This document shows, in pieces, positions 30,298 through 61,481 of a stretch of 64,000 nucleotides of DNA. How positions within the stretch are numbered: the stretch's first letter is position 1; each line of letters opens with the position of its first letter. Made by a program: the position numbers and the translations under genes. The stretch is from Arthrobacter crystallopoietes (GTDB lineage Bacteria; Actinomycetota; Actinomycetes; Actinomycetales; Micrococcaceae): assembly GCF_002849715.1 (NCBI RefSeq), contig NZ_CP018863.1:3410001-3474000 (forward strand). The letters are read 5' to 3'. Below the pieces are notes generated by a model. That model had not been told where the DNA came from and made no database searches. It saw only the letters and a program-made list of their open reading frames with translations.

Positions 30298-33200
30298 TTG
30301 TTTGGGCGTAACCGGCGCAGGAAAGCCGTCGCTTCGACCACCACTTTTTCGGTTGCCACCGCGCTGGTGGTTGGCGGCGCCCTGTACTACGAAGGCTTCC
30401 CTACGGCGGACGTCGACCTGAACGACGGCGGTGTCTGGGTCACCAACAACAGCGCCAACATGGTGGGCCATCTCAACTACCCTTCCAAAACGCTCGACGG
30501 CGGCTTCCTCGCCAACAGCACCGGCTTCGATGTGATGCAGAACGCCGGCACGGTCTTTATGGAAAACCGGGACCAGGCCATGCTGAGCCCGGTCGATGTA
30601 GCGGAGATGTCCCGCGGCGCCGAGCAGCAGCTGCCCGGCAGCGCCGACGTCAGTTTCGGCGAGGATCTGCTGGCCATCACGGACAAGGTCAAGGGCCAGG
30701 TCTTCATCAGCCCGGCGGCCGAACTGGCTTCCTTCAGCGAGGAAACCGCCGAACCCGTGGTCGCCGGCGCCAAGGGATCGGTGGCCACGGTCGCGCCGGA
30801 CGATACGGTCTTCGTCGCCAACCCGGACGCCAACGAAATCTACACTTACCGTGTGAACGACGACGGCGTGCCCGAACGGGTCGAAACGCAGTCCGCGGAG
30901 CACCTCGACGAGACCGGGGACGCACAGATTGCCGCCGTCGGCGACAAAGTGGTGGTGCTCGACGCCGAAGCCGGCACGGTTTTCCTGCCCGGCGGCCGGA
31001 GCGTGGAGCTGCCCGGACTGGACGGGGCCAAACTCCAGCAGAGCAGCAAGGGCAGCGACTTCGCCGCCATCGCCACCGAGACCGACCTGATCAAGCAGCC
31101 GCTGGACGGCTCCGAGGTCATCCGCACTCCGATTGAGGGCACCGGCACGCCCGCCGCGCCGGTCCAGCATAATGGCTGTTTGCACGCCGCGTGGTCCGGC
31201 GCCAACCACTACATTCGCGACTGCGGCAACGACGCCGACGACCTCGCCCAGCCGATCAAGGGCATCGGCTCCAACGCCTCGCTGGTGTTCCGGGTGAACC
31301 GCGACGTCGTCGTACTCAATGATGTCAACGCCGGCAACGTCTGGCTGGTGCTCGAAAACATGCAGCTGGTGGACAACTGGAGCGACCTGATTCCGCCGGA
31401 GCAGGAGAGCGACGAAGAGGACGAGGACTCCGCGGACGAGAACCCGATCAACACGCTGCCGGACCGGACCGAGGAGAACCGGCCGCCGGTGGCGCAGGAT
31501 GATGACTTCGGGGTCCGGGCCGGGCGCACCACCACGCTGACGATTCTGGACAATGATTCGGATCCCGACGGGGACGTGCTTACTGCGTCACTGAGCGGGA
31601 ATCCGCCGTCGGTCGGCACGGTCCAGAGCATTTACGAGAAGACCGGGCTGCAGATTGTCATCGACGCCGGCGCCTCGCCCGGCCGGCACAGCTTCGAGTA
31701 CGAGGTCAACGACGGCCGCGGCGGCACGGACACCGCCACCGTGAACATCACGGTCCGGGCCGAGGGCAGCAACGAGCCGCCGCAGGCGAAGCGCAAGACC
31801 AGCATCCTGCTCGAACAGGGCCGGGAAATCAGCCAGAACATCCTCACGGACTGGATGGACCCCGACGGCGACGACCTGTTCCTGGTCAGCGCCGAAAACA
31901 CCGCCGACGGCGATCTGGTGCGGACCCGGCCGGACGGGCTGCTAACGTTCCAGGACGTGGGCAAGACCTACGGCAAGAAGGAAGTGAAGATCCAGGTTTC
32001 GGACGGGACCGAGACGGTCAGCGGCACGCTCATCGTGGACGTGCGGCCGCCCGGGGCGTTGCCGCCGGTGGCGAACGCGGACCACTTCTTCACCACGGTG
32101 GGCCAGGAAATCCAGATCTCGCCGCTGAAGAATGACCTGGATCCCAACGGCGGGCAACTGCGCCTGGCCAAGGTCGAACCGGTGGGCAATGCCACCGCGG
32201 TGCCGGACTACGACGCGAACACCATCAAGTTCAGCGCCGAAACCCCGGGCGCCTACTACCTGACCTACCTGGTGACCAACGGCCCGTCCAGCTCCACCGG
32301 ACTGGTGCGGGTCGACGTCGGTGCTACCGCCGGCGACGGCGCGCCCGTGGCGGTGCGCGACGTGGCGCTGCTGCCGCAGAACGGTCAGGTGCTGGTGGAC
32401 GTGCTGGCCAATGACAATGACCCGGCCGGTGGGGTGCTGGTGGTCCAGGGCGTGGAATCCGGCGCCTCCGAGGTCAGCGTGGAGGTGCTCAACCACAACA
32501 TCCTGCGCGTCACCGATGTGAAGGGCCTGAACCAGCAGACCACCATCAAGTACACGGTCTCCAACGGGTTCGCGTCCGCCACCGGCGAGGTGAGCATCAT
32601 TTCCGTGCAGGGCCCTGACAAGCTGCTCCCGCCGCAGGCCGAGAATGACACCGCCACCGTGCGCGCCGGCGACGTGGTGACCGTGGATGTGCTGCACAAC
32701 GACAGCCACCCCAACAATGACGAACTGACCCTCGTGCCGGAACTGGCCGAGACCATGGACCAGGCCGACGGGGAGATCTTCACCGCGGAGAACTCCGTGC
32801 GCTTCATCGCCGGCGACACGGCCAAAACCGTGTACGCGGTGTACGAGGTGGTGGATTCGGCCGGACAGAAGGATTCGGCGGAGATCCGGATCAACATCAT
32901 CCCGCGCGATGACGAGTCCAACTCCCAGCCGGCCCCGAAGAACCTCGAGGCCCGCGTGATCGCCGGCTCCACCGTGCGCATTCCGATTCCGCTCAACGGT
33001 ATCGACCCGGACGGGGACTCCGTGTTCCTGCAGGGGATCGACCGCGCGCCGCAGCAGGGCGCCGCCGTCGCCGGCCCCAACTACATCGACTACACCGCCA
33101 GCGAGCAGGGCGCGGGCACGGACACCTTCACCTATCTGGTCAAGGACCGGCTCGGCGCCACCAACACGGCGACCGTGCTGGTGGGCATCGCCCCGGCGCA

Positions 33201-35724
33201 GGAGACCAACCAGAACCCGATCGCACTGGACGACGGCATCGTGATCCGGCCGGGCAAGTCCGTGGCCGTGGACGCGCTGGCGAATGATTCCGACCCCGAC
33301 GGCGATCCGATCCAGCTGGACCCGGACAAGATTGCCGGCGAACCGGCGTCGTTGAACGCCGCCGCCAACAAGGGCCGCGTGCAGTTCACCACGCCCGAGG
33401 AAGAGGGCACGGTCAACGTCCGCTACACCGTGGCAGATGGCCGGGGCGGCTCCGCCGTGGGCACCGTCACGGCCGAAGTGCGCCGGGACGCGCCGCTGCT
33501 GGCACCGGTCGCGCGGGACGACAGGGTGGAACCGGTGGACACCAAGGGCAAGACCGCCGTCGATGTTCCGGTGCTGGAAAACGACGAGGATCCCGACGGC
33601 GTCGCCGAGGACATGGACATCCTGCTCAACGGCGACTACCCGACGGCGTCCGTCACCGCGGGCGGCGAGGTCAATGTTGAACTGACTGAGAACGTGCAGC
33701 TGATTCCCTACGCCGTGCGCGACGTCGACGGACTGCAGGCCACCGCGGTGATCTGGGTGCCGGCGCTGGGCGAGCAGTACCCGACGCTGCGCGACACCAC
33801 GCCGGTCGATGTCACCGCCGGGCAGGAACTGGTCCTGGATCTGGCGGACCGGGTGGAGGTCCGCGACGGCCGCACCCCGCGCATCACCGTGGTGGACAAG
33901 GTCTCCGCCATCGGCACCAGCAACGACGACTGGGTGCAGGACCCGCAGACACTGAGCTATCAGGCGGATATCGACTATGCCGGGCGCGGCTCCATCACCT
34001 TCGAAGTGACGGACGGTTCCGGCCCGGACGATCCCGAGGGCCTGAAGGCCACGTTGACCATCATGACCAACGTCATCCCGGACGAGAACCGCAACTTCCC
34101 GCCGGAGTTCACCACCGGCAACGTGGACGTGGCCAAGGGCGAGGACGCCGTGGCGTATAACCTCGCCCCGCTGGTCACCGACCCCAACCCCGAAGATCTG
34201 GAGAACCTCGAGTTCGCGCTCGAAGGCGGCGTGCCGGAAGGCTTCGCGGTGAACCTCGACGGCGGCGTCCTCAACGTCTCCGCCGACGCCGACATCGAGA
34301 CCGGCGCCAGCGGCGTCGTCAATGTCTCCGTGACGGACGGACGCTCCGAGAAGGTGATGAGCCGGGTTACCGTGACCGCGACGGCGACCACCCGGCCTGC
34401 GCCGGTGGCGAACGACGACGAGATTCCGGAGGCTGTGCAGGGCGAACCAGTCACGGTGCCCGTGCTGGAGAACGACGTTAACCCGTTCCCGGACACGCCG
34501 CTGAACATCGTCAAGGCGACGGCCGGCAACGGCGGGACCGCGCAGGTGCAGGGCGAGAACATTGTGGTCACGCCCGGGGCGGACTTCTCCGGCACCATGA
34601 ATGTCGAATACACCGTGGAGGACAGGACCAAGGAAGGTGCCCGGCAGGCCAGCGCGAACATCTCGCTGGTGGTCAAGGGCCGGCCCGAGGCGCCGACCAC
34701 GCCGCTGGTGGACTCCGTCCGCGACCAGACCGTGGTGCTGTCCTGGGGAGCCCCCGCGGACAACGGCGATCCGATCACCAACTACCGGGTGACGGGCACC
34801 GGCGGCTTTAGCCAGGACTGCCCGACCACCACCTGCACGCTTACGGGCTTGACCAACGACGTTGAATACACCTTCACCGTGGTCGCCGAGAACAGCGTCG
34901 GCGAGTCGGAAGCCTCGGCGGAGTCCGCCGTCGCACGTCCCGATGTGCGGCCGGAAGCGCCCGCAGCCCCGCAGTTGAAGTTCGGGGACAAATCGCTGGA
35001 CATCAGCTGGGAACCGCCGGTCAACGAGGGCTCCGCCATCGAGAGCTACACGCTGGAGATCTCGCCCGCCCCGCCGAGCGGCCAGCTGCAGAAGACCGGC
35101 CTAACCGGTACCGCCTACACCTGGGAAGGGCTGGAGAACGGTCAGGCCTATGAAGTACGGGTCCAGGCGCACAACAAGGCGCCCGAGCCCAGCGAGTTCA
35201 GTCCGTACTCCGCCAAGGAAGTGCCCGCCGGACCGCCTGCCGCCGCAGCGGCGCCGAGCACCGAACGGGTGAAGTCGGTGGGGGAGCAGAGCCAGCTGAA
35301 GGTCAGCTGGGGCGCCCCGGGCAACAACGGCGGCGAGATCCTCGACTACACCGTGCGCGAGTACCAGGGCGGGGACCTGCAGCGGACGTTCCCGCCGGTC
35401 AACGGGACCTCGCAAACCGTGACCGCGCCGAACTCGGAGACGGACTACACCTACACCGTGACCGCGCGGAACAAGGCCGGCGACGGCGAAGCGAGCCCCC
35501 AGTCCAACGCCCGCCGGGCCGTGGGCGCCCCCGCGGCTCCCACGGGGGTGTCGCTGAAGGAAGCCAACACCGGCGGCGCCGGCCGGGCGGTCACAGTCTC
35601 CTTCAACGAGCTCACCGCTGCCCAGCGCAAGGGCCCGCGCCGGAGAAGTCAGCTACCGCGCCAGCTTCAGCGATGGCCGGTCCATGGCCATCACCAACGG
35701 CCAGAAGGTCACCGGCTTCACTAA
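30298..35724 (+). CDS. Giant Ig-like/FN3 surface protein 1 (frameshifted near the 3' end)
   Basis: First of three collinear paralogues. TTG 30298 (read LFGRNRRRKAVASTTTFSV) gives the same short basic tail as the others; AAGG lies 8 bases upstream. A membrane helix (about 15-31) anchors an outward-facing chain: predicted beta-propeller (about 35-380) with GCLHAAWSGANHYIRDC, an acidic linker, 11 cadherin/Ig-like repeats (about 394-1460; LDNDSDPDGD-type calcium-like motifs) and FN3 domains from about 1461. The fourth FN3 breaks near 35630-35645, where the frame shifts by one base at GGGCCCGCGCC; the original frame stops at 35724 after about 25 unrelated residues, while homology resumes in the next frame. 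The function is unknown; adhesion or ligand binding is likely from architecture. Confidence 0.85.
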   Translation: MFGRNRRRKAVASTTTFSVATALVVGGALYYEGFPTADVDLNDGGVWVTNNSANMVGHLNYPSKTLDGGFLANSTGFDVMQNAGTVFMENRDQAMLSPVDVAEMSRGAEQQLPGSADVSFGEDLLAITDKVKGQVFISPAAELASFSEETAEPVVAGAKGSVATVAPDDTVFVANPDANEIYTYRVNDDGVPERVETQSAEHLDETGDAQIAAVGDKVVVLDAEAGTVFLPGGRSVELPGLDGAKLQQSSKGSDFAAIATETDLIKQPLDGSEVIRTPIEGTGTPAAPVQHNGCLHAAWSGANHYIRDCGNDADDLAQPIKGIGSNASLVFRVNRDVVVLNDVNAGNVWLVLENMQLVDNWSDLIPPEQESDEEDEDSADENPINTLPDRTEENRPPVAQDDDFGVRAGRTTTLTILDNDSDPDGDVLTASLSGNPPSVGTVQSIYEKTGLQIVIDAGASPGRHSFEYEVNDGRGGTDTATVNITVRAEGSNEPPQAKRKTSILLEQGREISQNILTDWMDPDGDDLFLVSAENTADGDLVRTRPDGLLTFQDVGKTYGKKEVKIQVSDGTETVSGTLIVDVRPPGALPPVANADHFFTTVGQEIQISPLKNDLDPNGGQLRLAKVEPVGNATAVPDYDANTIKFSAETPGAYYLTYLVTNGPSSSTGLVRVDVGATAGDGAPVAVRDVALLPQNGQVLVDVLANDNDPAGGVLVVQGVESGASEVSVEVLNHNILRVTDVKGLNQQTTIKYTVSNGFASATGEVSIISVQGPDKLLPPQAENDTATVRAGDVVTVDVLHNDSHPNNDELTLVPELAETMDQADGEIFTAENSVRFIAGDTAKTVYAVYEVVDSAGQKDSAEIRINIIPRDDESNSQPAPKNLEARVIAGSTVRIPIPLNGIDPDGDSVFLQGIDRAPQQGAAVAGPNYIDYTASEQGAGTDTFTYLVKDRLGATNTATVLVGIAPAQETNQNPIALDDGIVIRPGKSVAVDALANDSDPDGDPIQLDPDKIAGEPASLNAAANKGRVQFTTPEEEGTVNVRYTVADGRGGSAVGTVTAEVRRDAPLLAPVARDDRVEPVDTKGKTAVDVPVLENDEDPDGVAEDMDILLNGDYPTASVTAGGEVNVELTENVQLIPYAVRDVDGLQATAVIWVPALGEQYPTLRDTTPVDVTAGQELVLDLADRVEVRDGRTPRITVVDKVSAIGTSNDDWVQDPQTLSYQADIDYAGRGSITFEVTDGSGPDDPEGLKATLTIMTNVIPDENRNFPPEFTTGNVDVAKGEDAVAYNLAPLVTDPNPEDLENLEFALEGGVPEGFAVNLDGGVLNVSADADIETGASGVVNVSVTDGRSEKVMSRVTVTATATTRPAPVANDDEIPEAVQGEPVTVPVLENDVNPFPDTPLNIVKATAGNGGTAQVQGENIVVTPGADFSGTMNVEYTVEDRTKEGARQASANISLVVKGRPEAPTTPLVDSVRDQTVVLSWGAPADNGDPITNYRVTGTGGFSQDCPTTTCTLTGLTNDVEYTFTVVAENSVGESEASAESAVARPDVRPEAPAAPQLKFGDKSLDISWEPPVNEGSAIESYTLEISPAPPSGQLQKTGLTGTAYTWEGLENGQAYEVRVQAHNKAPEPSEFSPYSAKEVPAGPPAAAAAPSTERVKSVGEQSQLKVSWGAPGNNGGEILDYTVREYQGGDLQRTFPPVNGTSQTVTAPNSETDYTYTVTARNKAGDGEASPQSNARRAVGAPAAPTGVSLKEANTGGAGRAVTVSFNELTAAQRKGPRRRSQLPRQLQRWPVHGHHQRPEGHRLH

Positions 35725-36439
35725 CGGCACTGCCGTCACCGCCCAGGTCACGGCCGTGGCCAACAGCGACGGCGCCAGTTACAACAGCCCCGCCAGCGCG
35801 AAATCCGGTGCGGCGAATCCGTACGGCGCGCCGGGCAAGCCCAGTGCCTCGGGCAAGGGCCAAAGCGGGGAGACAACCAATCCGCAGGTCACACTGAGCT
35901 GGGGCCCGCCGAACACATCCACCCACGACGTGGACAAGCTGCAGATCAATATCGACGGTAAGGGCTGGGAGAACGTCGCGGTCCGCTCCGGCAGCCGCAC
36001 CGTCAACGTCGGCCACAGCGAGACACACTCGATCAAGGTGCGCGCCGTTAACTCGCGCGGCGATGCCGGGTCCACGGCTTCGGCCTCTGCCACCAGCGGC
36101 AGCAAACCCAAGCCCAAGCCGAAGCCGCCGACTTCCTGGCAGCTCACCGTCGGCGGAAACGGCACAACATTGGAAAGCCGTTCCTGCATGGAGTACCGCA
36201 ACAGCCTTGGCGATAACTACGGCGGACCGGGCGACTGCAAGGGCGACCACTGGAGCTACCCCGGGAACTCGATTACGGCCACGTGCTACATCGTTTCCGG
36301 CAGCAACAGGTGGTACTACCAGGGATCCGGAACCCGGTCGATCAACAACGGGCTGCTGATCCGCGGTGACCACGTGCGTGAAGCAGGCGGCAACCGTCAC
36401 CTCAACGGCGGCGCTCCCAGCGGCATGGGCACGTGCTAA
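35684..36439 (+). CDS. C-terminal part of giant surface protein 1 in the shifted frame
   Basis: Homology to paralogues 2 and 3 resumes at GTC AGC TAC (35648) in this frame; ATG 35684 is the first internal start but probably not used independently. It encodes the rest of FN3 domain 4 and FN3 domain 5 (QVTLSWGPPNTSTHDVDKL…), a Lys-Pro linker (SKPKPKPKPP) and a terminal module of about 85 residues with several cysteines, ending GAPSGMGTC, that neither paralogue has. With one base removed from the GGGCCC run the two parts form one chain of about 2046 residues. It is either a sequencing error or a recent inactivating or tip-removing mutation. Confidence 0.7.
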   Translation: MAITNGQKVTGFTNGTAVTAQVTAVANSDGASYNSPASAKSGAANPYGAPGKPSASGKGQSGETTNPQVTLSWGPPNTSTHDVDKLQINIDGKGWENVAVRSGSRTVNVGHSETHSIKVRAVNSRGDAGSTASASATSGSKPKPKPKPPTSWQLTVGGNGTTLESRSCMEYRNSLGDNYGGPGDCKGDHWSYPGNSITATCYIVSGSNRWYYQGSGTRSINNGLLIRGDHVREAGGNRHLNGGAPSGMGTC

Positions 36440-36667
36440 CCCAGAGAGGTGAAGGCAGCGTCCGCAAAATGGGCGGCAGCGCCGCGTCCGGTATGCCTAG
36501 GTGCAGCGGCTAGAAGACGCCGAATGTGGTTTCGGCGAGCCTACAGCAGTCCTACTCGAACGGATCCGCAGCCTGGATTCACCTGGTCTCCACTTCAGGC
36601 GTTCCACCCCAAGGCGGCCTCCCCGCTCATTACCTGACCGCGCCTCGCCTCAATTTCTTCTGACTGG
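36440..36667. other. Intergenic gap between giant gene 1 and the DUF222-HNH gene
   Basis: About 228 bp with convergent gene ends. The only structure seen is a short hairpin CGCCGAA…TTCGGCG (36518-36537) without a U run, a weak terminator candidate. No gene. Confidence 0.4.
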
Positions 36668-38776
36668 TCAAAAGGGAGGTGGGTCGTTCTTGATGGTGCC
36701 GTCCCATGGTGGTGCCGGTTTTGGACGGAGCCGTTGACGGTGGTCATCGGGCAGATTGTCCAGAACCGTATCGGGGTAGGTCGGTGGGCTGGTGTCGCGG
36801 AAATCGCCTGGCCTGGTGGTGTATTTCTGGTTCCCGGGCGTGGTGGTGGTGAATTCGCCGGGACCGGTTTGAATGATTTTCCAACCGGCATGGGATTTGA
36901 GTCGGTGAAGCAATTTACACAGCGGACCGAGATTGATGTAGTCGGTTTCGCCGTGGCCGCCGTTTCCGTGGTACTCGATCGTGTGGTCCAGCTCGCAGTC
37001 CCTCGCGGCGGCGGTGCAGCCGGGTCCGGCACAGACAGGGTCGCGGTGTCTGACGGCGCGGGCCAGATCCGCCGGCGGTTTGTAGGTGGTTTTGCCGTAG
37101 GAAAGCACGGCCCCGGTCTCCGGGTGCGTCAGGATCCGGTGGAACGAGGGCGCGTCCTGGCACAACCGCCGTGCCACGTCGGCGGGAATCGGGCCGTATC
37201 CTTCCAGCGTGGCGGGTTCGTCGTCCAGCCCCAGAAGCGTGAACACGGGCACCGTGAGGGCGACTTCGGGGCGGATGCCGGCGGCGGGGCCGGTTTCCAT
37301 GCCTGCGTGCAAGAGCAGGTCGGCGAACACATCAGCCCGCAGCTGGCCCACGGTGCGGGTCTCGGCCTCGGTCTGTAGACTGCGGGCAGCATCGGTGAGC
37401 CGGTTGTGGATGGCCAGCCCGGTCTCAGCGGACACGCGGGCGCGGAGTGTGACCATGCCGTCGCCATCCGGTTCCAAGCACACATTGCGGCGCTTAACGG
37501 CCTGCGCATGACGTTTGGCCAGGGAGTCCGGGTCACGGGATTCGCGTTCTTTCCGCGCGGCATAAAGCAGTTGCCGGGGGGTCTGCTGCCCGGCTTTGGC
37601 CAGGAGAGCCCCTTCGTATCCCGGTTTCTGTCCGTCGGGCAGGGTTTCGCCTTGCCGCACGATGACGGTGGCCTGGTCCAGGTCCATTTCCCCCGCGGAC
37701 AGCGCGGCCAGCGTGCCCGGGTAATGGGCACATAGCTCGCGCGCCTGCTGGAGCGTTTGCCTTCCCTCCAGCTCGGTGATCCGGTACAGGCAGGCGAGTT
37801 CCTCGGCCGCGGACTGATCAGCCAGATCCTGCAACGGACCCGTCACATCCGGGCCGGCACCTTCGCGCGGCGGCGGGAGTTGAGCCAGCGCCGCGTCGCC
37901 GACGTGTGCGGCCAGGCGTACCATGCAGGCCTGAACCCAGGCGACCAGTCGCCGGCCCGCTACCAAGTGCTCGACTGCCCCTTGGTAATCCAACTCGTCA
38001 ACCCCCGCCAACGCCGAAGCTTCACTGGCGACGCCGCCGGTTGTGGCTGCGGCAACGGCGTCCGCCGCGTTGGCGGCGTCAACAGCGCCGGCAGCGTTGG
38101 TGGTGCTTGATGCGTTGATGGTTCCGAAGAGACGGAACCATTCGGCAGGACCGCCGGCGGCGATCCGGCTAAGGCGGTGGGCGTAATACTCCGCGTGATC
38201 TTCGGTGAACAGTTCCGCAGGGACATCGCCGAGTTCCTCCGCAGGCCCCCAGCAGACCGGTACCGGTCCGACCAGTGGCCGGCACGCCCATTCGGGTTCG
38301 CGGTCCCAGGGCGCGAAGTCATCGAACCCCACCTCGCCGTCGTACGGTAAGGGTTCTTCCGTGGGCCGCGGGATGTCCTGTTCGGCCAGCGGATCCGGAC
38401 CGTACGCCGACAGTGCTGGGTCCGGGTATCTGGCTTTGAAACTCAATTCCTCCATGGCCCTGGCCTTCGCCCGCAGCTCCTCCATGTCCTTGGCCATCGC
38501 CGGGCTCCGCGGCGGCAACCCGGCGGCGAGACGTTCGCGTGCCTCTTCCCGGCGCCGCTTTATCCAATGCGCAACATTCTCCCGCAGCTTCTCCTGTGTT
38601 CCCCGGTAATGGCTCCAGCCATCCTCGCGGCGGACCACGGTCTCACGTTCACGATCCCGGGGCCGCCGGTCGCCGGGCATCGGGGAAGGGACACTCTTCT
38701 GCCCGGGTACTGGCCCGGCAGACACGTGTCCGTCCGCCGGGGATCCGGTATCCGGTGAGTGCTCTTCTGCTGCCAT
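36668..38776 (-). CDS. DUF222 and HNH nuclease domain protein
   Basis: A 702-residue protein of the DUF222-HNH group (13E12 family), found in many copies in actinobacteria. The N-terminal 170 residues are charged and low in complexity; an Asn/Ala-rich stretch (NASSTTNAAGAVDAANAADA) separates them from DUF222 (about 250-560). The C-terminal HNH domain is CAGPGCTAAARDCELDHTIEYH…NLGPLCKLLHRLKSHAGW, with all cysteines and the catalytic DH present. Its role is unproven; the family is often linked to repetitive or mobile loci. It sits in opposite orientation between giant genes 1 and 2, and no terminal repeats or transposase are seen beside it. Confidence 0.88.
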   Translation of the reverse strand: MAAEEHSPDTGSPADGHVSAGPVPGQKSVPSPMPGDRRPRDRERETVVRREDGWSHYRGTQEKLRENVAHWIKRRREEARERLAAGLPPRSPAMAKDMEELRAKARAMEELSFKARYPDPALSAYGPDPLAEQDIPRPTEEPLPYDGEVGFDDFAPWDREPEWACRPLVGPVPVCWGPAEELGDVPAELFTEDHAEYYAHRLSRIAAGGPAEWFRLFGTINASSTTNAAGAVDAANAADAVAAATTGGVASEASALAGVDELDYQGAVEHLVAGRRLVAWVQACMVRLAAHVGDAALAQLPPPREGAGPDVTGPLQDLADQSAAEELACLYRITELEGRQTLQQARELCAHYPGTLAALSAGEMDLDQATVIVRQGETLPDGQKPGYEGALLAKAGQQTPRQLLYAARKERESRDPDSLAKRHAQAVKRRNVCLEPDGDGMVTLRARVSAETGLAIHNRLTDAARSLQTEAETRTVGQLRADVFADLLLHAGMETGPAAGIRPEVALTVPVFTLLGLDDEPATLEGYGPIPADVARRLCQDAPSFHRILTHPETGAVLSYGKTTYKPPADLARAVRHRDPVCAGPGCTAAARDCELDHTIEYHGNGGHGETDYINLGPLCKLLHRLKSHAGWKIIQTGPGEFTTTTPGNQKYTTRPGDFRDTSPPTYPDTVLDNLPDDHRQRLRPKPAPPWDGTIKNDPPPF

Positions 38777-38803
38777 GACTCCAGTCCATCATCTGCCTCT
38801 GAC

Positions 38804-38858
38804 ACTCAAGAGGCACAATCCACACAAGTACACGCATCTTGAGAAATTTCTTGAGAAA
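38804..38858. repeat. AT-rich cluster of TCTTGAG repeats upstream of the DUF222-HNH gene
   Basis: TCTTGAGAAA occurs twice 12 bp apart (38837-38846 and 38849-38858), with the palindrome CTCAAGAG at 38804-38811 carrying the same core in reverse. The patch is markedly AT-rich for this DNA and lies 28-82 bases upstream of the HNH gene start. It is a possible operator array. Confidence 0.4.
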
Positions 38859-53512: not shown

Positions 53513-56127
53513 GCGCCCCCGACAGCCCCGGGAACGAATCCAGGCGCAGCCGCCGCCGGGTTGCATCTGGAGGCCGTGCTGCCTCACGCCGGGAAGGCGC
53601 CGCCTTCCGCGGGGAGCGGGCCGCCGCACCCCGGGAACGGGCCGCACCGCGCGACCGCGGGCTGCCCCCGCAGGAGCGCGGGCTGGTGCTGCCGCGTTCC
53701 TGGCAGCACCTCGGCATCGATGCCGCCCTGCTCACCTTGCTGCTGGGGATGGGCGTGCTCGGCTTCCACAACGTCTTCGCGGGCGAACCGCGCTATCTGG
53801 TCGCCGGGTTCGGCGGCATCGTGGCCGGGCTCGGCCTGGCCCTGGCGTGCGCCTGGTACCGGCTGGGCCTGCTGGCCACCGCGACCGCCGGGCTGCTGAC
53901 ATATGTGCTGCTCGGCAGCGCCTTTGCCGCGCCCACCCAGGCGATTGCCGGCGTCGTGCCTTCGCTGGAATCCCTGCGCACCGTCCTGACCGGGTTCATC
54001 TTCGCCTGGAAAGACATCCTCACCGTCGCCGCGCCGGTGGGCGTCAACGGCGGCATGCTGGTGGTCCCGTTCCTGGGCTCGCTTGCCGCGGCGCTGCTCG
54101 CCGGCACGCTGGCCTGGCGGGTCAAGACCCCGTACTGGACCGTCCTGCCCGTGACGGCGATGTTCATCCTGGGCATCGCGTTCGGTACCAATGCGCCCAC
54201 CCTGCCGCTGCTGCGCGGCGTGCTGCTGGTGGCCGGGGCCGTATCGTGGCTGGCCTGGCGCCGGCACATCTCCCGTACCGACAGCACCGCGCACGTCTCC
54301 GCCAACCCGCAGGCCGCCGACGCCGCCGCCCACCGGACCGGCGTGCTCCGGCGGCTGGGCCTGGGTGCCGGAGTGCTGCTGCTGGCGACGGCGGTCACCG
54401 CGCTGGCCGGCCCCGCGCTCACCGCAGGGGGTGAGCGCAAGGTGCTGCGCGACGTCGTTGTTCCCCCGGTGGAGCTGTACGACTACCCGTCGCCGCTGAT
54501 GGACTTCCGCCAGTTTGTGAAGGACAAGTCCGAGGACACGCTCTTCACCGTGCAGGGCCTGCCGCCGGGGGAGCGGGTGCGGCTGGCGGCGCTGGATACT
54601 TACGACGGCGTGGTCTACAACGTGAACCCGCGAAGCGGCGGCAACTACGCGCCCGTGGGCGATGCGCAGTCGCTGGGCAACGTGGACGGCGACGGCGGAA
54701 ACCCGAACTCAAACACCGCGCAGATGACGTTCAGCATCGCCGACTACAACGGCGTCTGGCTGCCGGCCGGCGGGCAGCTTAACGGGGTGGCGATGGACGG
54801 GCCGCGGGCGGACGAGGTGGCCGGATCCCTCTACTACAACGAGGACTCCGAAACCGCGCTCTCCACCCGGTACATCCGGCCCGGAGACAACTACTCGGTC
54901 AACGTGTCCTTCCCGGCCAAGCCCGAGGACGGGCAACTGGCCCAGTACGATTTCGCGCCGCTGAACCTGCCTGAACCGGAGCAGGTGCCCAACATCATCG
55001 GGACCAAGGCCAGCGAACTGGTGGGCGATGAAACCGTGCCGATCGAGCAGGTCCGCCAGCTGGAGCGGAGCCTGCACGAGAACGGCTTCTTCTCCAACGG
55101 CAAGGAGGACGAGGCGCGCAGCCTCTCCGGGCACAGCGCCAGCCGCATGACCACGCTGCTGGACGCCGAGCAGACGATCGGCGACGACGAGCAGTACGCG
55201 GTGGCGATGGCGCTGATGGCCCGGCACCTGGGCATGCCCGCCCGCGTGGTGATGGGTTTCTACCCGGATCCCAGCATCGAGCGCACTGCCGGAGAGCCGG
55301 TGGAGATCAAGGGCAAGGACGTCCACGCCTGGGTGGAGATCGCGTTCACCAACGCCGGCTGGGTGGCCTTCGACCCGACGCCGGACAAGGACAACGAGCC
55401 GACCCCGCCGCAGCAGCAGCCGAAGTCGACGCCGAAGCCGCAGGTGCTCCAGCCGCCGCCACCGCCGCAGGAACCGGCCGAGCTGCCGCCGGACTCTGCG
55501 CCCGAACCGCAGGACGCTGAGCAGAACGAGAAGGGCTTCTGGGAGCAGTGGGGCTGGCTGGTGACGGCCATCGGCGTGGCCATGATTCCGTTGGCCATCC
55601 TGCTGATCCCGCTGCTGCTGATCGCCTGGCTGAAGCTGCGCCGCCGCAAGCGCCGCGCCGCCGAAGGCTTGCCCAGCACCCGTGTCAGCGGCGGCTGGAG
55701 CGAGGTCATGTCGCTGGCCACGGACATGGGCGCCAGCGCCAATGCCAAGGCCACCCGGCGCGAGCATGCCAGCGAGCTGGCGGACGCGTTCCCCGCGGCC
55801 TCCGGCACGACGACGGCGCTGGCGCACCGGGCGGATGCGGCCGTGTTCGGCGGTGTCGAGCCCACTGAGGTGCAGGTGCGCGAGTACTGGGACATGGTGG
55901 AGAAATCGCTCGACGAGATCGGCTCGTCGGTGGGCTTCTGGAAGCGCCAGCGGGCGCGGTTCTCGCCCCGCTCGCTGGTGGCCGAGGCACGCTTCAGACT
56001 GTCACAAAAGCTCGGCAAGGGCGTTTCCGGCCGGTCCTTTGGCACCGCCGAGAGCACAAACCGTAAAGTAGAGTCACCGACCGAGGAACAACACAAGGGA
56101 GTGAGCCATACGTGGCAGCAAGACTGA
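53509..56127 (+). CDS. TgpA-type transglutaminase-like membrane protein, catalytic Cys replaced
   Basis: An 872-residue protein. A charged N-terminal segment (about 1-60) leads to several membrane helices (about 70-315), an extracellular domain with a transglutaminase-like core (about 490-640), a Pro/Gln linker, one more helix (about 683-705) and a cytoplasmic tail. The core keeps the His (DVHAWVEIAF) and Asp (GWVAFDPTP) of the triad, but where the family has GxCEQYA this protein reads GDDEQYA, so the nucleophile is Asp 560. It is therefore predicted not to be a transglutaminase and may bind or scaffold partners. It overlaps DUF58 by ATGA and the RDD gene by 16 bp. Confidence 0.9.
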   Translation: MSAPDSPGNESRRSRRRVASGGRAASRREGAAFRGERAAAPRERAAPRDRGLPPQERGLVLPRSWQHLGIDAALLTLLLGMGVLGFHNVFAGEPRYLVAGFGGIVAGLGLALACAWYRLGLLATATAGLLTYVLLGSAFAAPTQAIAGVVPSLESLRTVLTGFIFAWKDILTVAAPVGVNGGMLVVPFLGSLAAALLAGTLAWRVKTPYWTVLPVTAMFILGIAFGTNAPTLPLLRGVLLVAGAVSWLAWRRHISRTDSTAHVSANPQAADAAAHRTGVLRRLGLGAGVLLLATAVTALAGPALTAGGERKVLRDVVVPPVELYDYPSPLMDFRQFVKDKSEDTLFTVQGLPPGERVRLAALDTYDGVVYNVNPRSGGNYAPVGDAQSLGNVDGDGGNPNSNTAQMTFSIADYNGVWLPAGGQLNGVAMDGPRADEVAGSLYYNEDSETALSTRYIRPGDNYSVNVSFPAKPEDGQLAQYDFAPLNLPEPEQVPNIIGTKASELVGDETVPIEQVRQLERSLHENGFFSNGKEDEARSLSGHSASRMTTLLDAEQTIGDDEQYAVAMALMARHLGMPARVVMGFYPDPSIERTAGEPVEIKGKDVHAWVEIAFTNAGWVAFDPTPDKDNEPTPPQQQPKSTPKPQVLQPPPPPQEPAELPPDSAPEPQDAEQNEKGFWEQWGWLVTAIGVAMIPLAILLIPLLLIAWLKLRRRKRRAAEGLPSTRVSGGWSEVMSLATDMGASANAKATRREHASELADAFPAASGTTTALAHRADAAVFGGVEPTEVQVREYWDMVEKSLDEIGSSVGFWKRQRARFSPRSLVAEARFRLSQKLGKGVSGRSFGTAESTNRKVESPTEEQHKGVSHTWQQD

Positions 56128-57458
56128 ACCTCGTCAGCGCTTCAGCTGGCAAGCGGGTCGGCGCGTGGCTGATCGACAAACTCCCTCCCGCCGTGCTGGT
56201 GGGTATCGGCTACGGGGTCGGCATGGCCGGGCTGCTGGGTGCAGCCGGTGCCGGCACTGAAGAGGCCGTGGCCTCCGCCGCCGCGGGCCTGTTCCTCTGG
56301 CTGGGCATCACCTCGCTGCTCGCCGTGGCCTACGGCATCTGGAAGTGGGGCTGGGAAGCGCGGACGGGCAAGACCCCGGGCAACGTCCTGCTGGGGCTGC
56401 GGACCTCCAACGAGGACGGCAACGCCCCCGGCTGGGCCGCCATCTTCATCCGCGGACTGATCATCGCCGTGGGCGGACTGGTCCCGGTTGTCGGTGCGGT
56501 CATCGTGGTCATTTCCAACCTCTGGGACGCCAACCACCAGCGGCAGGGCTGGCACGACAAGGTAGCCAAGACCCTGGCCCTGGACGTGAATGCCGGGCGC
56601 GACCCGCTGACCACCGGCGGCCTCTACGGCCACAGCACCTTCACCCCGGACGGCGGGCAGGCTGGCGTTCCGCAGGCAAGTTATGCCGGGGCAGCCGGTG
56701 CAAATGCCCCCGCTGGCGTTCACGGTGCCGGCCTGATGGGAGAGCCGGCCGGCAACGGCGGTAGCCCCGCCGGCGGTCCCGGTCCCGGTTCCGACCAGAG
56801 CCCGCAGTGGCCGCCTTTCGACGACAATGCTGCCCGTTCGGGCGGCATCATCTCCGGCATCCCGGGCTTCAGCGGCACTCCCGCAGCCGGCACGAACGCT
56901 GGTAACACTGCCGCCGGCGCCACTGCAGATGGATCGGCCGCACCTGCGGATACGTCGGCCGCCCCCGCCGCCGTGGCACCAGCCGCCCCGGACGTATCCG
57001 AAAGTCCGCCAGGAGGCTCCGCGCCCACGCAAGCACCGCCGTCGCACGTTGATGACGAGTTCGCGTACACGCGCATCCGCGACGCCGCACCAGCACCCGC
57101 GGAGGCAGCCGGCTCCGGGCAGGAACCGGCCGGCATCAACATCCGCTTCGACGACGGCCGCGAAGTCGCCATCGGAACCAGCGCGCTGATCGGCCGGAAC
57201 CCGGCCGCCGCGGCGGGTGAAGAAGTGGACCAGCTGATCGACTTCGCCGATCTGGACCGCTCCGTTTCCAAGACGCATCTGGAACTGCGCGTCGAGGGCG
57301 ACACTATCTGGGTCAATGACCGTAATTCAACCAATGGCACCGCCGTGACCGGATCGGACGGCGTGCGCCAGCAGCTTGTCCCCGGTGCTCCGGTAGCGGC
57401 CAAGTCAGGAGCAACCGTGGAATTCGGCGACCGAAGCTTCGTCATTGGTCACGCATGA
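56112..57458 (+). CDS. RDD membrane protein fused to FHA domain
   Basis: A 448-residue protein joining an RDD-type membrane domain (about 8-160; three to four helices, GKRVGAWLIDKLPPAV, GKTPGNVLLGLRTSN and NHQRQGWHDKVAKTLAL) to a Pro/Gly/Ala linker (about 165-335) and a C-terminal cytoplasmic FHA domain (about 345-448) with the phosphothreonine-binding residues LIGRNP, SVSKTHLEL and NDRNSTNGT. It probably recruits targets phosphorylated by the operon's kinase to the membrane. GTG 56112 lies inside the end of the transglutaminase gene, with GGGAG upstream. The stop overlaps the phosphatase start (ATGA). Confidence 0.92.
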   Translation: MAARLNLVSASAGKRVGAWLIDKLPPAVLVGIGYGVGMAGLLGAAGAGTEEAVASAAAGLFLWLGITSLLAVAYGIWKWGWEARTGKTPGNVLLGLRTSNEDGNAPGWAAIFIRGLIIAVGGLVPVVGAVIVVISNLWDANHQRQGWHDKVAKTLALDVNAGRDPLTTGGLYGHSTFTPDGGQAGVPQASYAGAAGANAPAGVHGAGLMGEPAGNGGSPAGGPGPGSDQSPQWPPFDDNAARSGGIISGIPGFSGTPAAGTNAGNTAAGATADGSAAPADTSAAPAAVAPAAPDVSESPPGGSAPTQAPPSHVDDEFAYTRIRDAAPAPAEAAGSGQEPAGINIRFDDGREVAIGTSALIGRNPAAAAGEEVDQLIDFADLDRSVSKTHLELRVEGDTIWVNDRNSTNGTAVTGSDGVRQQLVPGAPVAAKSGATVEFGDRSFVIGHA

Positions 57459-58309
57459 CCGGGGACAAACCGAGCCACATCGAGAACATCAGGCTCACCG
57501 TCGGAGCGGGCACGGACCGCGGACTGCGGCGTGAGCTGAACGAGGACTCCTTCACCACCGCGTCACCGCTGTTCGCCGTGGCCGACGGCATGGGCGGCCA
57601 CGAGGCCGGCGAAGTGGCCAGCAGGATTTGTGTGGAGACGATGACGGAGTACGTCCGCCGCCACGAGCTGGGCGCGGCCGAGTTGCAGCAGCTCATTGCG
57701 GATGCCGACCGGCGGATCCGGGCCGCTGCGGGCTCGCGCGCCGGCACCACGGTCACCGGCGCGGCGCTGGTTGAGGAACGCGGCGTGCCGTACTGGCTGG
57801 TGTTCAACGTGGGGGATTCGCGGACCTACCGGCTGAACCAGGGCATGCTGGAGCAGATCAGCGTTGACCACTCGGAAGTCCAGGAACTGCTGGAGGCCGG
57901 CCGGATCACCGCGCAGGAAGCGCTGGTCCATCCGCGCCGGCACGTGGTGACCCGCGCCCTGGGCACCGGCGACGATTCAGAACCGGATTTCTGGATGCTT
58001 CCGGTCGAGGCCGGGGACCGCATGCTGATTTGTTCCGACGGACTCACCTCAGAAGTCAGCGACGAGCACATCCACGCCATCCTCAGCTCCACAGTGCGCC
58101 CGCAGGATGCTGTCCAGGCGCTGATCCAGGCGGCGCTGTGCTCAGGCGGCCGGGACAACATCACGGCGATCGTCGTCGATGCGGCCGATGTGGCGCAGGA
58201 CGCCGCGCAGGCAGCGACCGCGCCGCGTACGGAGGACGAAGAGACGGATACGCTGCCGCGGCTGGAGCCCGGCGGATCGGGGCCGGCGGGACAGCAGGGG
58301 CAGATCTGA
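57455..58309 (+). CDS. PP2C family Ser/Thr protein phosphatase
   Basis: A 284-residue soluble metal-dependent phosphatase that would reverse the kinase encoded two genes downstream. All PP2C metal-binding motifs are present: NEDSF, ADGMGGHE, GDSRTYRL, CSDGLTSEV and GGRDNITAIVVD. The C-terminal 40 residues are acidic and Ala-rich. Unlike mycobacterial PstP it has no membrane helix. It is linked by ATGA to the RDD-FHA gene and by TGATG to the next gene. Confidence 0.95.
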   Translation: MTGDKPSHIENIRLTVGAGTDRGLRRELNEDSFTTASPLFAVADGMGGHEAGEVASRICVETMTEYVRRHELGAAELQQLIADADRRIRAAAGSRAGTTVTGAALVEERGVPYWLVFNVGDSRTYRLNQGMLEQISVDHSEVQELLEAGRITAQEALVHPRRHVVTRALGTGDDSEPDFWMLPVEAGDRMLICSDGLTSEVSDEHIHAILSSTVRPQDAVQALIQAALCSGGRDNITAIVVDAADVAQDAAQAATAPRTEDEETDTLPRLEPGGSGPAGQQGQI

Positions 58310-59871
58310 TGGCAGCAATTACCTACTGCCCGGGCCCCTGGCTCGGGCTGGTCCGCGGTGGCACCATCGTGCTGCTGGAACAAAGCGCCCGCGAAGACGT
58401 GGTCATGGCCGTGTGGGACGTGCTCGGTACGCAACCGGCACCAGAATCCGTGCTCGGTTCCGTGGTGAGCGGCTATGGCATGGACCTGGCTTCAATACCG
58501 CAGTTCGCCATCGTGTCCTTCCGGGACAAGCTGCACGCGATCCTGCGCGGCGACGTTGTCCTTAATAGCGACGGCGTGGGGACATCGGCCGAACTTTCCG
58601 GCGCGGGTGTGACCACCTGGACGGAGCGGCTGCTGCCTGCCCAGGAGCTGTTTGACCTGGTGATCAATGACGGGCGCGACGGCGAGGGCCGCTGGCTTCC
58701 GCTGGCCGAAGGCATCGTCCAGCTGGGCGGCATCCGTGTCGGCGTGGACACAACAGTTGGCGCGGTTGAAGAACCGGAGCCAAAGGCCGAACTCATGCCG
58801 GAGCCCGTTACCGCTCCTGTTGCAGAGCCAGCGTCAGCGCCGGAGACAGGGAGCCAGTCAGAACCGGTTGACGCTCCTGCCTCGGACCAACCCGGATCGG
58901 CTGAACCTGCCGAACGCATATCGATGCATGAGGAACTCAACGTCCCGGAGGGCATCGAGGTCACCGGTATCTACGATCCCGATGCCCTGGACGAGGTGGG
59001 AGACCTCGAAGACACGGTCATCCATACCAAGGCCCGGCGGGCCAACCTGCCGCCATCGGCGGCCGTTCCGCCGGCAGAGAACAACGTGCCTGCGAGTCCG
59101 GCCCTGTCTCCGGCAGCTGCGGCGCAGCCGGCAGCCCCCGCTCAGCAAGCCGCCCCGGCACCGCAGTCCGCGCCGGCAAGCCTGATCGATTCCGTGCCGT
59201 GGCTGACACCGTCGGCTTCCGCGCGGGCACGGGCGGCGGAATCAGCCGCGGCTGAAGCTGCCCGCGATCTGCGCCCGGTGAAGCCGGTGGACCGAATAAC
59301 CGAAGCACCCGAGGGCGACCATGACGGGCAGACCCTGCTGCGCCGCGACCTGCCGAAGGCGCCCAAAACCGCGCCCGCTCCCGTGCCGGATCCGGCACAG
59401 CGGCCGGCCACCGGCCCGATGGTGCTGGCCCGCGTCTGCCCGCAGGGGCATGCCAACCCGCCCACCAGTTCCAACTGCAGCATCTGCGCCGCCGGGCTGG
59501 CCGACGACGCCAGCCAGGTGCAGCGCCCCATCCTGGGCCGCATGCGGCTTTCCACCGGGGAAGTCATCGAGCTTGACCGCGCGGTGATCGTCGGACGCCA
59601 GCCGTCGGCCTCGCGCGTGCAGGGCAACGGCATGCCTCGCCTGGTCCAGGTGCGCAGCGTCAGCGGCGACATTTCGCGCTCCCATCTGGAGGTGCGGCTG
59701 GAAGGCTGGCACGTCATGCTGCGCGATCTGAAAGCGACCAACGGCACCATGCTGATCCGCGAAGGCCAGCCGCCGCGACGGCTGGGACAGGGCGAATCTA
59801 TGATCCTGCTCGACGGCGACATCGCGGACCTGGGCGACGGCATCTCGCTGCGGTTCGAGGACCTGCCGTGA
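58309..59871 (+). CDS. Zinc-ribbon and FHA domain protein
   Basis: A 520-residue protein. An N-terminal alpha/beta domain (about 1-140, MAAITYCPGPWLGLVRGG…) of unknown type is followed by a long Pro/Ala/Glu linker (about 145-380), a short zinc-ribbon-like motif (CPQGHANPPTSSNCSIC) and a C-terminal FHA domain (about 415-520) with VIVGRQPSAS, DISRSHLEV and LKATNGT. TxxD-like sites suitable for kinase docking occur in the linker (DLEDTVIHTKA). There is no membrane helix. It probably links phosphothreonine recognition to another partner. It overlaps the kinase start as GTGA. Confidence 0.9.
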   Translation: MAAITYCPGPWLGLVRGGTIVLLEQSAREDVVMAVWDVLGTQPAPESVLGSVVSGYGMDLASIPQFAIVSFRDKLHAILRGDVVLNSDGVGTSAELSGAGVTTWTERLLPAQELFDLVINDGRDGEGRWLPLAEGIVQLGGIRVGVDTTVGAVEEPEPKAELMPEPVTAPVAEPASAPETGSQSEPVDAPASDQPGSAEPAERISMHEELNVPEGIEVTGIYDPDALDEVGDLEDTVIHTKARRANLPPSAAVPPAENNVPASPALSPAAAAQPAAPAQQAAPAPQSAPASLIDSVPWLTPSASARARAAESAAAEAARDLRPVKPVDRITEAPEGDHDGQTLLRRDLPKAPKTAPAPVPDPAQRPATGPMVLARVCPQGHANPPTSSNCSICAAGLADDASQVQRPILGRMRLSTGEVIELDRAVIVGRQPSASRVQGNGMPRLVQVRSVSGDISRSHLEVRLEGWHVMLRDLKATNGTMLIREGQPPRRLGQGESMILLDGDIADLGDGISLRFEDLP

Positions 59872-61481
59872 GTTCCAAGCGTCCCCCCGCACCACCGCCC
59901 GCGATCGAGGGCTACCGGTACGTCAGCCTGCTCGGTTCCGGTGGCTTTTCCGACGTCTATCTCTACGAACAGGACCGGCCTAAGCGCAAGGTCGCCGTCA
60001 AGGTCCTCGTCGCCGACCTGAAGACCGAGGGTGCGCGCCGCCGCTTCGAGTCCGAGGCGAACCTGATGGCGCAGCTGTCCACCCATCCGTTCATCGTGAC
60101 CATCTACGAGGCGGACATCACCGGGGACGGCCACTCCTACCTGGCCATGGAGTACTGCTCGCGCCCGAGTCTGGACGTGCGCTACCGCAGCGGCCCGCTC
60201 GGTGTAGATGAAGTGCTCTCGCTCGGCATCCAGGTGGCCTCCGCGGTGGAAACCGCGCACCGGGCCGGGATTGTGCACCGGGACATCAAGCCGGCCAACA
60301 TCTTGGTCACGGACTACAACCGGCCCGCGCTGACCGACTTCGGCATCTCCGGCACCACGGACAGCATCGACGACGACGCCGGCATGTCCATCCCGTGGTC
60401 CCCGCCCGAAGCGTTCCAGGGCGAGGGTGCCGACGGCATCAAGATCGACATTTGGGCTCTCGGCGCCACGCTCTACACCCTGCTGGCCGGCCGTTCGCCC
60501 TTCGTCCGGCCCGGCGGGGACAATTCGCAGCGCGAACTGATGAACCGGATCGCCACGTCACCGGTCCCGCCGTTGCGCCGCGCCGACGTGCCCGAATCCC
60601 TCGAACAGGCGCTGGCCACGGCCATGGCGAAGGCGCCGTCCTCGAGGTTTCCGACGGCCCACGCCTTCGCGCTGGCGCTGCAGCGGATCCAGGCGGAGCT
60701 GAACCTTTCGGTCACACCGTTCGAAGTGCTGGAGGAGGCCCATCCCGGGGATGAACCGCCGCAGGACGACGGCGGGGAAGCCACCCGGGTGCGCCAGGTG
60801 GTCTCGATCGATCCGAACGCGACGACCAATTCGCCCACGGTTTTCCGCCCGCGCTTCCCCGAGCGCACCAACACCGCGCAGCAGCCCGATGACCGGACGG
60901 TCCTGCGAGCAGCGCACAGCGGGACGGAGCCGACTACCGGCTGGGTTCCGTCGCCGCCGGCTGGCGCGGAAAACACTGCGTACGACGGCGAATCCGCCAC
61001 CCAGCCCACCGCCGGCTTTGGTGACACTCACTACGAAGGCGGGGACACCGCCGTCGTACCTCGGCGCCGCAAGAATCTGGTCGGGATTATCGGCGGCGCC
61101 GCCGCTGTGGTTGTCCTGGCCGTGGCAGCCGTGCTGGTGGTCACTGCGCCGGAACCGGAAGCGGCCGAATCGCAGCCGCCGGTCAGCCAGCCGCCGGCGA
61201 ACGCCATCGAGGGCCTGTCCGGAAACGTGGTGCCGCCGGAAGAACTGGCGGGCAAGGTGGACGGGGACGATGCCGTCTTCACCTGGACCAATCCGGACAA
61301 GCGCGACGGCGACCTGTTCATCTGGACCCCGGTGACCGCGCTGGGCAAGGGCGAGCCGCAGCGGACGCCGGATCCCGGCGTGAGCATCCCGGTGGCCGAG
61401 AACGACCGGACCTGCATCGAGGTGGTGGTGTTGCGGGCCAACGGAAAGTCATCGGATCCGGTCCGCGGCTGCGCCGACTAA
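59868..61481 (+). CDS. PknB-type membrane Ser/Thr kinase with FN3-like extracellular domain
   Basis: A 537-residue kinase, last gene of the operon. The kinase domain (about 15-275) has GSGGFSDVY, the Lys in VAVKVL, HRDIKPANILV, DFGIS and PPEAF in place of APE, and looks active. A linker rich in Thr/Pro (about 290-395) offers autophosphorylation sites. One membrane helix follows (about 401-423), then an extracellular domain (about 440-537) with an FN3-like pattern and two cysteines (RTCIEVVVLRANG…GCAD), in place of PASTA repeats. It may sense the giant FN3 proteins or wall state; inferred from domain likeness and linkage. Confidence 0.93.
   Translation: MSSKRPPAPPPAIEGYRYVSLLGSGGFSDVYLYEQDRPKRKVAVKVLVADLKTEGARRRFESEANLMAQLSTHPFIVTIYEADITGDGHSYLAMEYCSRPSLDVRYRSGPLGVDEVLSLGIQVASAVETAHRAGIVHRDIKPANILVTDYNRPALTDFGISGTTDSIDDDAGMSIPWSPPEAFQGEGADGIKIDIWALGATLYTLLAGRSPFVRPGGDNSQRELMNRIATSPVPPLRRADVPESLEQALATAMAKAPSSRFPTAHAFALALQRIQAELNLSVTPFEVLEEAHPGDEPPQDDGGEATRVRQVVSIDPNATTNSPTVFRPRFPERTNTAQQPDDRTVLRAAHSGTEPTTGWVPSPPAGAENTAYDGESATQPTAGFGDTHYEGGDTAVVPRRRKNLVGIIGGAAAVVVLAVAAVLVVTAPEPEAAESQPPVSQPPANAIEGLSGNVVPPEELAGKVDGDDAVFTWTNPDKRDGDLFIWTPVTALGKGEPQRTPDPGVSIPVAENDRTCIEVVVLRANGKSSDPVRGCAD

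What the first reader, a model, noticed from the sequence alone, without database searches (positions are those of the whole stretch)
30298..61481. Expanded PFNA-like locus: three giant FN3 surface proteins wired to a MoxR/DUF58/TgpA/RDD-FHA/PP2C/FHA/kinase operon
The third giant gene and seven signalling or assembly genes overlap or abut in one direction for about 16.4 kb. The set (kinase, FN3, AAA ATPase, DUF58, transglutaminase, phosphatase, FHA) matches the PFNA cluster known from bifidobacteria. Here the FN3 component is present three times with the same order of domains, and the proteins have N-terminal propellers. This suggests a phosphorylation-controlled surface display system with interchangeable outer proteins.
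Basis: partly seen in the sequence, partly recalled or inferred. Interest (0 to 1): 0.8.

Follow-up and report, generated by a model that had tools for sequence, protein, structure and literature searches.

The report
Swappable-tip surface stalks on PFNA operon
A soil-type bacterium carries three giant stalk-like surface proteins beside one conserved control operon; the operon was described as unique to gut bifidobacteria but is widespread in actinobacteria, and relatives often keep the stalk's base the same while exchanging its tip.

Summary
The observation largely holds: three FN3/Ig giants and a MoxR–DUF58–TgpA–RDD/FHA–PP2C–FHA–kinase run lie at 30,298–61,481. Corrections: giant A1 is frameshifted near 35.63 kb and cut off from A2–A3 by an opposite-strand DUF222 gene; the "propeller" is not confirmed.

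The locus is homologous to bifidobacterial PFNA, in print "found only in bifidobacteria", yet occurs in several actinobacterial families. Of 174 Micrococcaceae genomes with a giant, 173 have the operon's TgpA; the exception has a broken giant; one further genome has TgpA without a giant.

Further results. (1) The operon's "transglutaminase" lacks the catalytic cysteine in 94/94 rows, bifidobacterial-family ones included; nine TgpA homologues from outside the locus keep it. (2) In 15 of 27 tandem pairs the N-terminal head is kept near-identical by gene conversion (dS 0–0.26) while the shaft is 52–58% identical; long tracts stop at the head's end. (3) C-terminal tips can be exchanged.

Best reading: an envelope-spanning display/sensing platform; a conserved head docks on a phospho-regulated MoxR–DUF58–pseudo-TgpA machine and stalks carry variable tips. 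Conversion is absent in the window itself. Docking and phosphorylation are inferred. Structure prediction was never accepted.

The parts
30298..35724 (+). A1: first FN3/Big_9 giant (head, 10 Big_9, 3 fn3), frame broken near 35.63 kb
   Evidence: intact A1-type giants in relatives
35684..36439 (+). Continuation of A1 in another frame: last distal domains and tip; no Pfam match
36668..38776 (-). DUF222 gene lying between A1 and A2; present also in two close relatives (91% and 88% identity)
39012..44909 (+). A2: second giant, 1965 aa
44979..51125 (+). A3: third giant, 2048 aa, next to MoxR
45183..46163 (+). Conserved N-terminal head of A3 (327 aa, propeller-like, not proven); the region homogenised by gene conversion in relatives
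50763..51122 (+). Tip end of A3 (last 120 aa), no Pfam match
51195..52169 (+). MoxR AAA+ ATPase (start may be 51144); Walker A/B intact
52169..53512 (+). DUF58 protein, two TM-like segments
53509..56127 (+). TgpA-like protein, 7+1 TM-like segments, catalytic Cys position holds Asp (pseudo-transglutaminase)
56112..57458 (+). RDD membrane protein with FHA domain
57455..58309 (+). PP2C phosphatase, metal-site residues intact
58309..59871 (+). FHA protein
59868..61481 (+). Ser/Thr kinase, one TM-like segment (407-425), about 112 aa beyond it; catalytic residues intact

Best explanation
The locus is a PFNA-type envelope-spanning display and sensing platform. Each giant is a signal-anchored (N-in, C-out) membrane protein: a short basic tail and one hydrophobic segment, a conserved head of about 320 aa just outside the membrane, a rod of 10-11 Ig-like plus FN3 domains long enough to cross the wall, and a variable tip. 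The head is the part that docks on a shared membrane machine made of MoxR, DUF58 and a catalytically dead TgpA. That machine is controlled by the kinase/PP2C pair and read out by two FHA proteins. Several giants can share one operon because they share the docking head; their shafts and tips supply different outer specificities. SHOWN: gene set and its conservation, co-occurrence, intact kinase/ATPase/phosphatase/FHA motifs, dead TgpA, head-limited gene conversion in relatives, tip exchange. INFERRED: docking of head to TgpA/DUF58/kinase; phospho-control of MoxR (MoxR is reported as a Pkb2 substrate in B. longum, PMC8430577 passages); binding or adhesion by tips; topology and wall spanning (domain lengths and wall thickness recalled).
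For: Of 174 Micrococcaceae genomes with a giant (395 searched), 173 have PFNA-type TgpA (171, G804 and G806); the exception G559 has its giant in broken frames; G751 has the TgpA without a giant. In 59 relatives giant and PFNA-type TgpA are found in the same 33 genomes. The giant is directly followed by operon genes in 91 of 137 distinct heads and is a tandem-upstream copy in 37. Kinase, MoxR, PP2C and FHA motifs are intact while the TgpA Cys is absent in 94/94 rows and present in the 9 informative of 12 homologues from outside the locus. Head-limited conversion: own-genome partner nearest for the head in 15 of 23 pairs, for shaft and FN3 in 0 of 23; a tract of 300 codons or more in 14 of 27 pairs, ending at residues 322-327 after the head motif in all 14; again in 8 of 17 pairs from hand-chosen further genomes, single-contig ones included. 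Trees of the 15 pairs so selected: head 15/15 within-genome sisters; shaft two clades at 100/100. Tips: bodies 95-96% identical with tips 28-33%; bodies 81% with tips 84%; G605 twin giants near-identical to about 1,705 residues after the head motif, then different. In G015 no giant lies in the 3.2 kb held before MoxR and the only full giant found is on another contig, suggesting action in trans.
Against: In the window adjacent heads are only 42% (A1-A2) and 44% (A2-A3) identical with dS 1.0 and 1.2, A1-A3 52%: divergent heads share one operon, so head identity is not required. Orphan giants of two genomes have heads 48-49% identical to the operon copy, no more than the shaft. Some tandem pairs show no conversion (L055, L100, L102 and the window's clade; L165, L166, L174, L176, L177). 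Tips usually follow the body when bodies are very close: tip identity under 45% in only 2 of 14 pairs with bodies of 95% or more, 39 of 114 at 90-95%. Two loci (L108, L133) show no MoxR at the usual place. The head's fold and every protein-protein contact are unproven; phosphorylation is untested here.
Confidence: 0.58

Rival explanations
1. Passive concerted evolution: the upstream giant arose as a chimera with a copied head, and gene conversion keeps that stretch identical only because it is the sole stretch similar enough to recombine. The head's identity has no functional meaning.
For: The right boundary is constant, as expected if conversion cannot extend into shaft DNA of about 60% identity. 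Divergent heads coexist with one operon in the window and in genomes with orphans. Conversion was seen only between tandem copies.
Against: Several tandem pairs are not converted. Conversion has recurred after species split: L080/L085 upstream shafts are 2.4% apart, their heads 9.6% apart, yet each head is 1.4% or 4.5% from its own partner. In orthologues the head evolves about as fast as the body, so it is not simply a conserved region.
Confidence: 0.25
2. Polymorphic effector system: tips are C-terminal effector cassettes delivered to other cells, as in contact-dependent competition.
For: C-terminal exchange on a long conserved stalk.
Against: No Pfam family over its cut-off in the 8 tip ends scanned (ten proteins, one of them the head and one other tip end also without a match); no room for an immunity gene between A3 and MoxR in the window (69 nt); tips share conserved Cys and Trp as in small binding domains.
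Confidence: 0.07
3. Covalent cross-linking: the operon transglutaminase fixes the giants to the wall.
For: TgpA-like domain in the operons examined; [quoted passage not shown]
Against: Catalytic Cys missing in 94/94 rows; in the two rows of the bifidobacterial family it is Ser and the His is also lost. Homologues outside the locus keep the Cys.
Confidence: 0.03
4. Host immune-recognition device, as proposed for bifidobacterial PFNA.
For: A B. longum FN3 fragment binds TNF-alpha (PMC10688814, passages).
Against: The same system is common in Arthrobacter and Pseudarthrobacter and present in other actinobacterial families, mostly free-living (lifestyle recalled), so this is unlikely to be its original role.
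Confidence: 0.03

Closest known systems
PFNA gene cluster of Bifidobacterium (pkb2-fn3-aaa-duf58-tgm, with or without prpC, hypothetical, fha)
   Same: Homologous genes. Giant of about 2000 aa with FN3 domains near residue 1500 (B. longum FN3: 1994 aa, FN3 domains 1494-1671, PMC10688814 passage; A3: 2048 aa, best fn3 stretch 1495-1572).
   Different: Kinase last rather than first; two to three giants beside one operon; not restricted to bifidobacteria. The missing Cys of TgpA is shared by both and is not mentioned in the passages I saw.
Canonical MoxR-DUF58-TgpA operons (MoxR Proper subfamily)
   Same: Same three-gene core; the window's genome has a MoxR with DUF58 next to it and a Cys-bearing TgpA about 3 kb away.
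   Different: TgpA there keeps the Cys; in the one such cluster whose surroundings I fetched (G053, L154) no giant is present.
MoxR-vWA-beta-propeller ternary conflict systems (Kaur et al. 2020, PMC7159879, passages)
   Same: MoxR plus a DUF58 partner (vWA-like, recalled) and here perhaps a propeller. The MoxR passes PF20030 (43.6 bits, cut-off 27) but AAA_3 scores 212.
   Different: There the propeller is fused to the vWA protein. Here the possible propeller sits on a separate membrane-anchored giant.

Membership tests
PFNA cluster | Linked kinase, FN3 giant, MoxR ATPase, DUF58, TgpA-like | tested here: met
PFNA cluster | Homology of parts to a bifidobacterial cluster | tested here: met
   G055 (phosphoketolase near-identical to PDB 8io6/3ai7; organism of those entries recalled as B. 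longum) has kinase-giant-MoxR-DUF58-TgpA-PP2C-RDD/FHA; its giant matches A3 at E 7.8e-182
PFNA cluster | Gene order starting with the kinase | tested here: not met
   kinase is last in the window; kinase-first order occurs in other families, e.g. L109, L111, L113, L114, L119, L128
PFNA cluster | Co-transcription | not testable with these tools
   only overlaps and short gaps seen
PFNA cluster | MoxR phosphorylated by the kinase | not testable with these tools
   reported for B. longum (PMC8430577, passages)
Active transglutaminase (TgpA) | Catalytic Cys | tested here: not met
   94/94 rows lack it; the 9 informative of 12 homologues outside the locus have it
MoxR-vWA-propeller ternary system | Propeller fused to the vWA protein | tested here: not met
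   the 447-aa DUF58 protein shows only DUF58 in Pfam and two TM-like segments
Beta-propeller (head of giant) | Propeller fold | tested here: inconclusive
   no Pfam match, no significant PDB match, weak 46-aa repeats; structure prediction never accepted

The most novel reading that the evidence does not exclude
PFNA is an ancient actinobacterial envelope-spanning receptor/adhesin platform with polymorphic tips. Tandem stalks share one gene-converted docking head that must match a phospho-regulated MoxR-DUF58-pseudotransglutaminase machine, so that a cell shows several exchangeable outer specificities through one signalling device.
Probability: 0.4. Interest if true: 0.85.

Novelty: new variant of a known kind. 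Interest (0 to 1): 0.7.

Why it matters
It contradicts the printed statement that PFNA is found only in bifidobacteria, and weakens the idea that the system arose for talk with the gut immune system. It also indicates that its 'transglutaminase' is a pseudoenzyme, in the bifidobacterial family too. Head-limited gene conversion next to exchanged tips gives a sharp, testable map of which part may bind inside and which outside, in culturable soil bacteria.

Tried and rejected
Rejected: assembly collapse as the cause of identical heads, because single-contig genomes show it (G763, G694, G793, G639 among others) and many pairs are near- but not fully identical. Rejected: strong protein-level selection alone, because synonymous sites agree too. 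Rejected: active transglutaminase. Phosphosites on basic tails: only short N-terminal tails were seen; no phosphosite search was made. Promoter/terminator scan of the A1-A2 gap was uninformative (0 promoter-like; 4 terminator-like, shuffle mean 2.6). Head profile against PDB gave nothing significant. Tips in Pfam: none over cut-off. Paper searches for gene conversion of propeller surface proteins, for fibronectin type III with Arthrobacter and MoxR (0 papers), for PFNA with other genera (2,228 papers held two of five terms; none of the 10 listed holds PFNA) and for TgpA pseudoenzymes (1 paper, seen as a listing) showed no earlier report; these bound the search, not the literature.

Papers were seen as passages only: PMC8430577, PMC10688814, PMC6803598, PMC12607495, PMC12067865, PMC7159879. 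All others were seen as search listings.

Rows dropped or limits: giants whose open frame was 5.4 kb or shorter were left out of the pair counts, which removes frame-broken copies such as those in L062, L071 and L095. The 15 pairs in the trees were chosen because one search had found them homogenised. The 94 TgpA and 95 DUF58 rows, and the kinase (30), PP2C (20) and FHA (12; 18) rows, passed a score filter, so divergent members are missing, and some genomes are in twice (named locus and unnamed handle). The 20 regions were picked by hand and may overlap the named genomes, so the counts are not added; three of the 20 (L167, L169, L175) gave only one giant by the pattern used. For one search handle lists were typed by hand, and the E <= 1e-19 cut for PFNA-type TgpA was set after seeing the bimodal list; the same class was set by E-value or position beside the giant, with G053 (1.8e-32) counted as canonical because its TgpA keeps the Cys. 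In one search only four candidates per genome were scored, so copy numbers are rough. In one search only two of three planned orphan comparisons were printed.
Full report
WHAT IS THERE. A1's frame breaks near 35.63 kb, its C-terminal part continuing in another frame to 36,439, while A1-type giants of six relatives have open frames of 2,072-2,081 aa. Between A1 and A2 lies an opposite-strand DUF222 gene, also present in two close relatives at 91% and 88% identity; in G007 the A1-type and A3-type giants abut without it. So A2, A3 and seven genes could be one unit of 22.5 kb, and A1 stands apart. Each giant has a short basic tail, a hydrophobic segment (over threshold in A2 and A3, not in A1), a conserved head, 10-11 Big_9 and three fn3 stretches, and a tip. 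In 24 diverse heads two Cys are invariant and 16 columns in all. The fold of the head is not proven.

HOMOLOGY WITH PFNA AND DISTRIBUTION. In 59 relatives full giants occur in 33 genomes (a 34th match, G001, is FN3 only) and PFNA-type TgpA in the same 33, in G005 and G015 on another contig than the giant. In a draw of 396 genomes of the phylum 12, the window's own included, have a full-length head match; 48 pass the nominal threshold, but the others match in part, mostly Ig repeats. Of 40 stretches fetched around giants (several from one locus), 36 hold a giant followed by operon genes, 34 of them with MoxR recognised first; four hold giants only. The kinase is either last, as here, or directly before the giant, as in bifidobacterial PFNA. 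G055 is taken to be a Bifidobacterium because its phosphoketolase is near-identical to PDB 8io6/3ai7 (organism of those entries recalled). Its locus (L106) reads kinase, giant, MoxR, DUF58, TgpA, PP2C, RDD/FHA. [quoted passage not shown] In Micrococcaceae 174 of 395 genomes have a giant head. Of these, 171 are among the 172 with PFNA-type TgpA in the draw of 390, and G804 and G806, not listed there, have it too. G559 has a giant in broken frames and only a weak TgpA hit; G751 has the TgpA, with one in-frame stop, and no giant. Head matches per positive genome were one in 81, two in 78, three in 12, four in 2 and five in 1 of 174 (fragments counted), so three copies are uncommon but not unique.

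ENZYMES. Catalytic or binding residues are intact in the kinase (29-30 of 30 rows per residue), MoxR (97/97), PP2C (20/20 for the Asp and Gly residues, 18 of 20 for one Arg) and both FHA domains (12/12; 17 of 18, the other a gap). TgpA differs: the catalytic Cys position holds Asp in 81, Ala 4, Glu 4, Gly 3 and Ser 2 of 94 rows; the His is kept in 73 and the Asp in 76, the window among them. Of 12 TgpA homologues from outside the locus, 9 aligned well and all 9 have the Cys; 3 were uninformative. The first vWA metal-site position of DUF58 is Ser in 79 and Asp in 11 of 95 rows (the site is named by alignment to a paralogue, and from memory).

CONCERTED EVOLUTION OF THE HEAD. In 27 adjacent pairs with both frames long, 15 pairs of Arthrobacter and Pseudarthrobacter have heads with dS 0.00-0.26 while their shafts have 52-58% identity and dS 0.54-1.91. 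A near-identical tract of 300 codons or more occurs in 14 of 27 and ends at residues 322-327 in all 14, where the head ends; the left end varies from -67 to +9. In named tandem pairs the own-genome partner is the nearest relative for the head in 15 of 23, for shaft and FN3 in 0 of 23. Trees of those 15 pairs place all 15 as within-genome sisters for the head but as two clades (100/100) for the shaft. Further hand-chosen genomes repeat this in 8 of 17 pairs, with partial tracts in 3, a whole-body copy in 1 and none in 5. The window's clade shows no such conversion.

TIPS. Among 59 MoxR-adjacent giants, tips under 45% identity occur in 2 of 14 pairs with bodies of 95% or more and in 39 of 114 at 90-95%; tips over 80% occur in 7 of 661 pairs with bodies of 80-85%. 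So tips mostly follow the body at close range but are exchanged often. Extreme cases are bodies of 95-96% with tips of 28-33%, and a body of 81% with a tip of 84%. In one pair (L056/L068) the break is sharp at a Pro-rich linker; in others it is more gradual. In G605 two tandem giants are near-identical to about 1,705 residues after the head motif and then differ.

POSITION SWAP AND TRANS ACTION. A1-type is the sole, MoxR-adjacent giant in Arthrobacter sp. CAU 1506, while A3-type holds that place in the window. Four of 137 distinct heads are true orphans (L057, L077, L099, L104); two more labelled so are frame-broken tandem copies. All four genomes carry the operon's TgpA (L077; L099: L094 of the same strain; L057 and L104). 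G015 has an operon with no giant in the 3.2 kb held before it and one unlinked full giant.

INTERPRETATION. A shared docking head, a wall-spanning rod and exchangeable tips on a phospho-regulated MoxR-DUF58-pseudo-TgpA machine explains these facts best. Docking, phosphorylation and tip binding are inferred. The chief rival is passive gene conversion, helped by the divergent heads of the window and of orphans.

Noticed in passing
window 35,600-36,439: Frame break in giant A1; A1-type giants of relatives are intact, so sequencing error or recent loss.
   Followed up: partly
window 36,668-38,776: DUF222 gene between giants, also in L035 and L036 but not between the giants of G007.
   Followed up: partly
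window 7,430-12,520 (-): 1,697-aa frame with animal haem peroxidase, CWB2 cell-wall binding and RTX-type repeats.
   Followed up: no
window 14,835-15,971 (+): A second Ser/Thr kinase upstream.
   Followed up: no
window 28,919-30,061 (+): Adenylate/guanylate cyclase-domain protein directly before A1.
   Followed up: no
L152, L153 (G015): PFNA operon without a giant next to MoxR in the DNA held; the only full giant found is on another contig.
   Followed up: partly
L163 (G605): Two tandem giants near-identical over most of their length with different distal ends.
   Followed up: partly
L062, L071, L095; G559: Giants broken into several frames; in L071 both copies.
   Followed up: no
L108, L133: No MoxR recognised between giant and DUF58.
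   Followed up: no
L162 (G034): About 3 kb between MoxR and DUF58.
   Followed up: no
L057, L077, L099, L104: A clade of orphan giants not next to the operon.
   Followed up: partly
L110, L111, L121 (G056): One genome with three separate giant-MoxR-DUF58-TgpA clusters.
   Followed up: no
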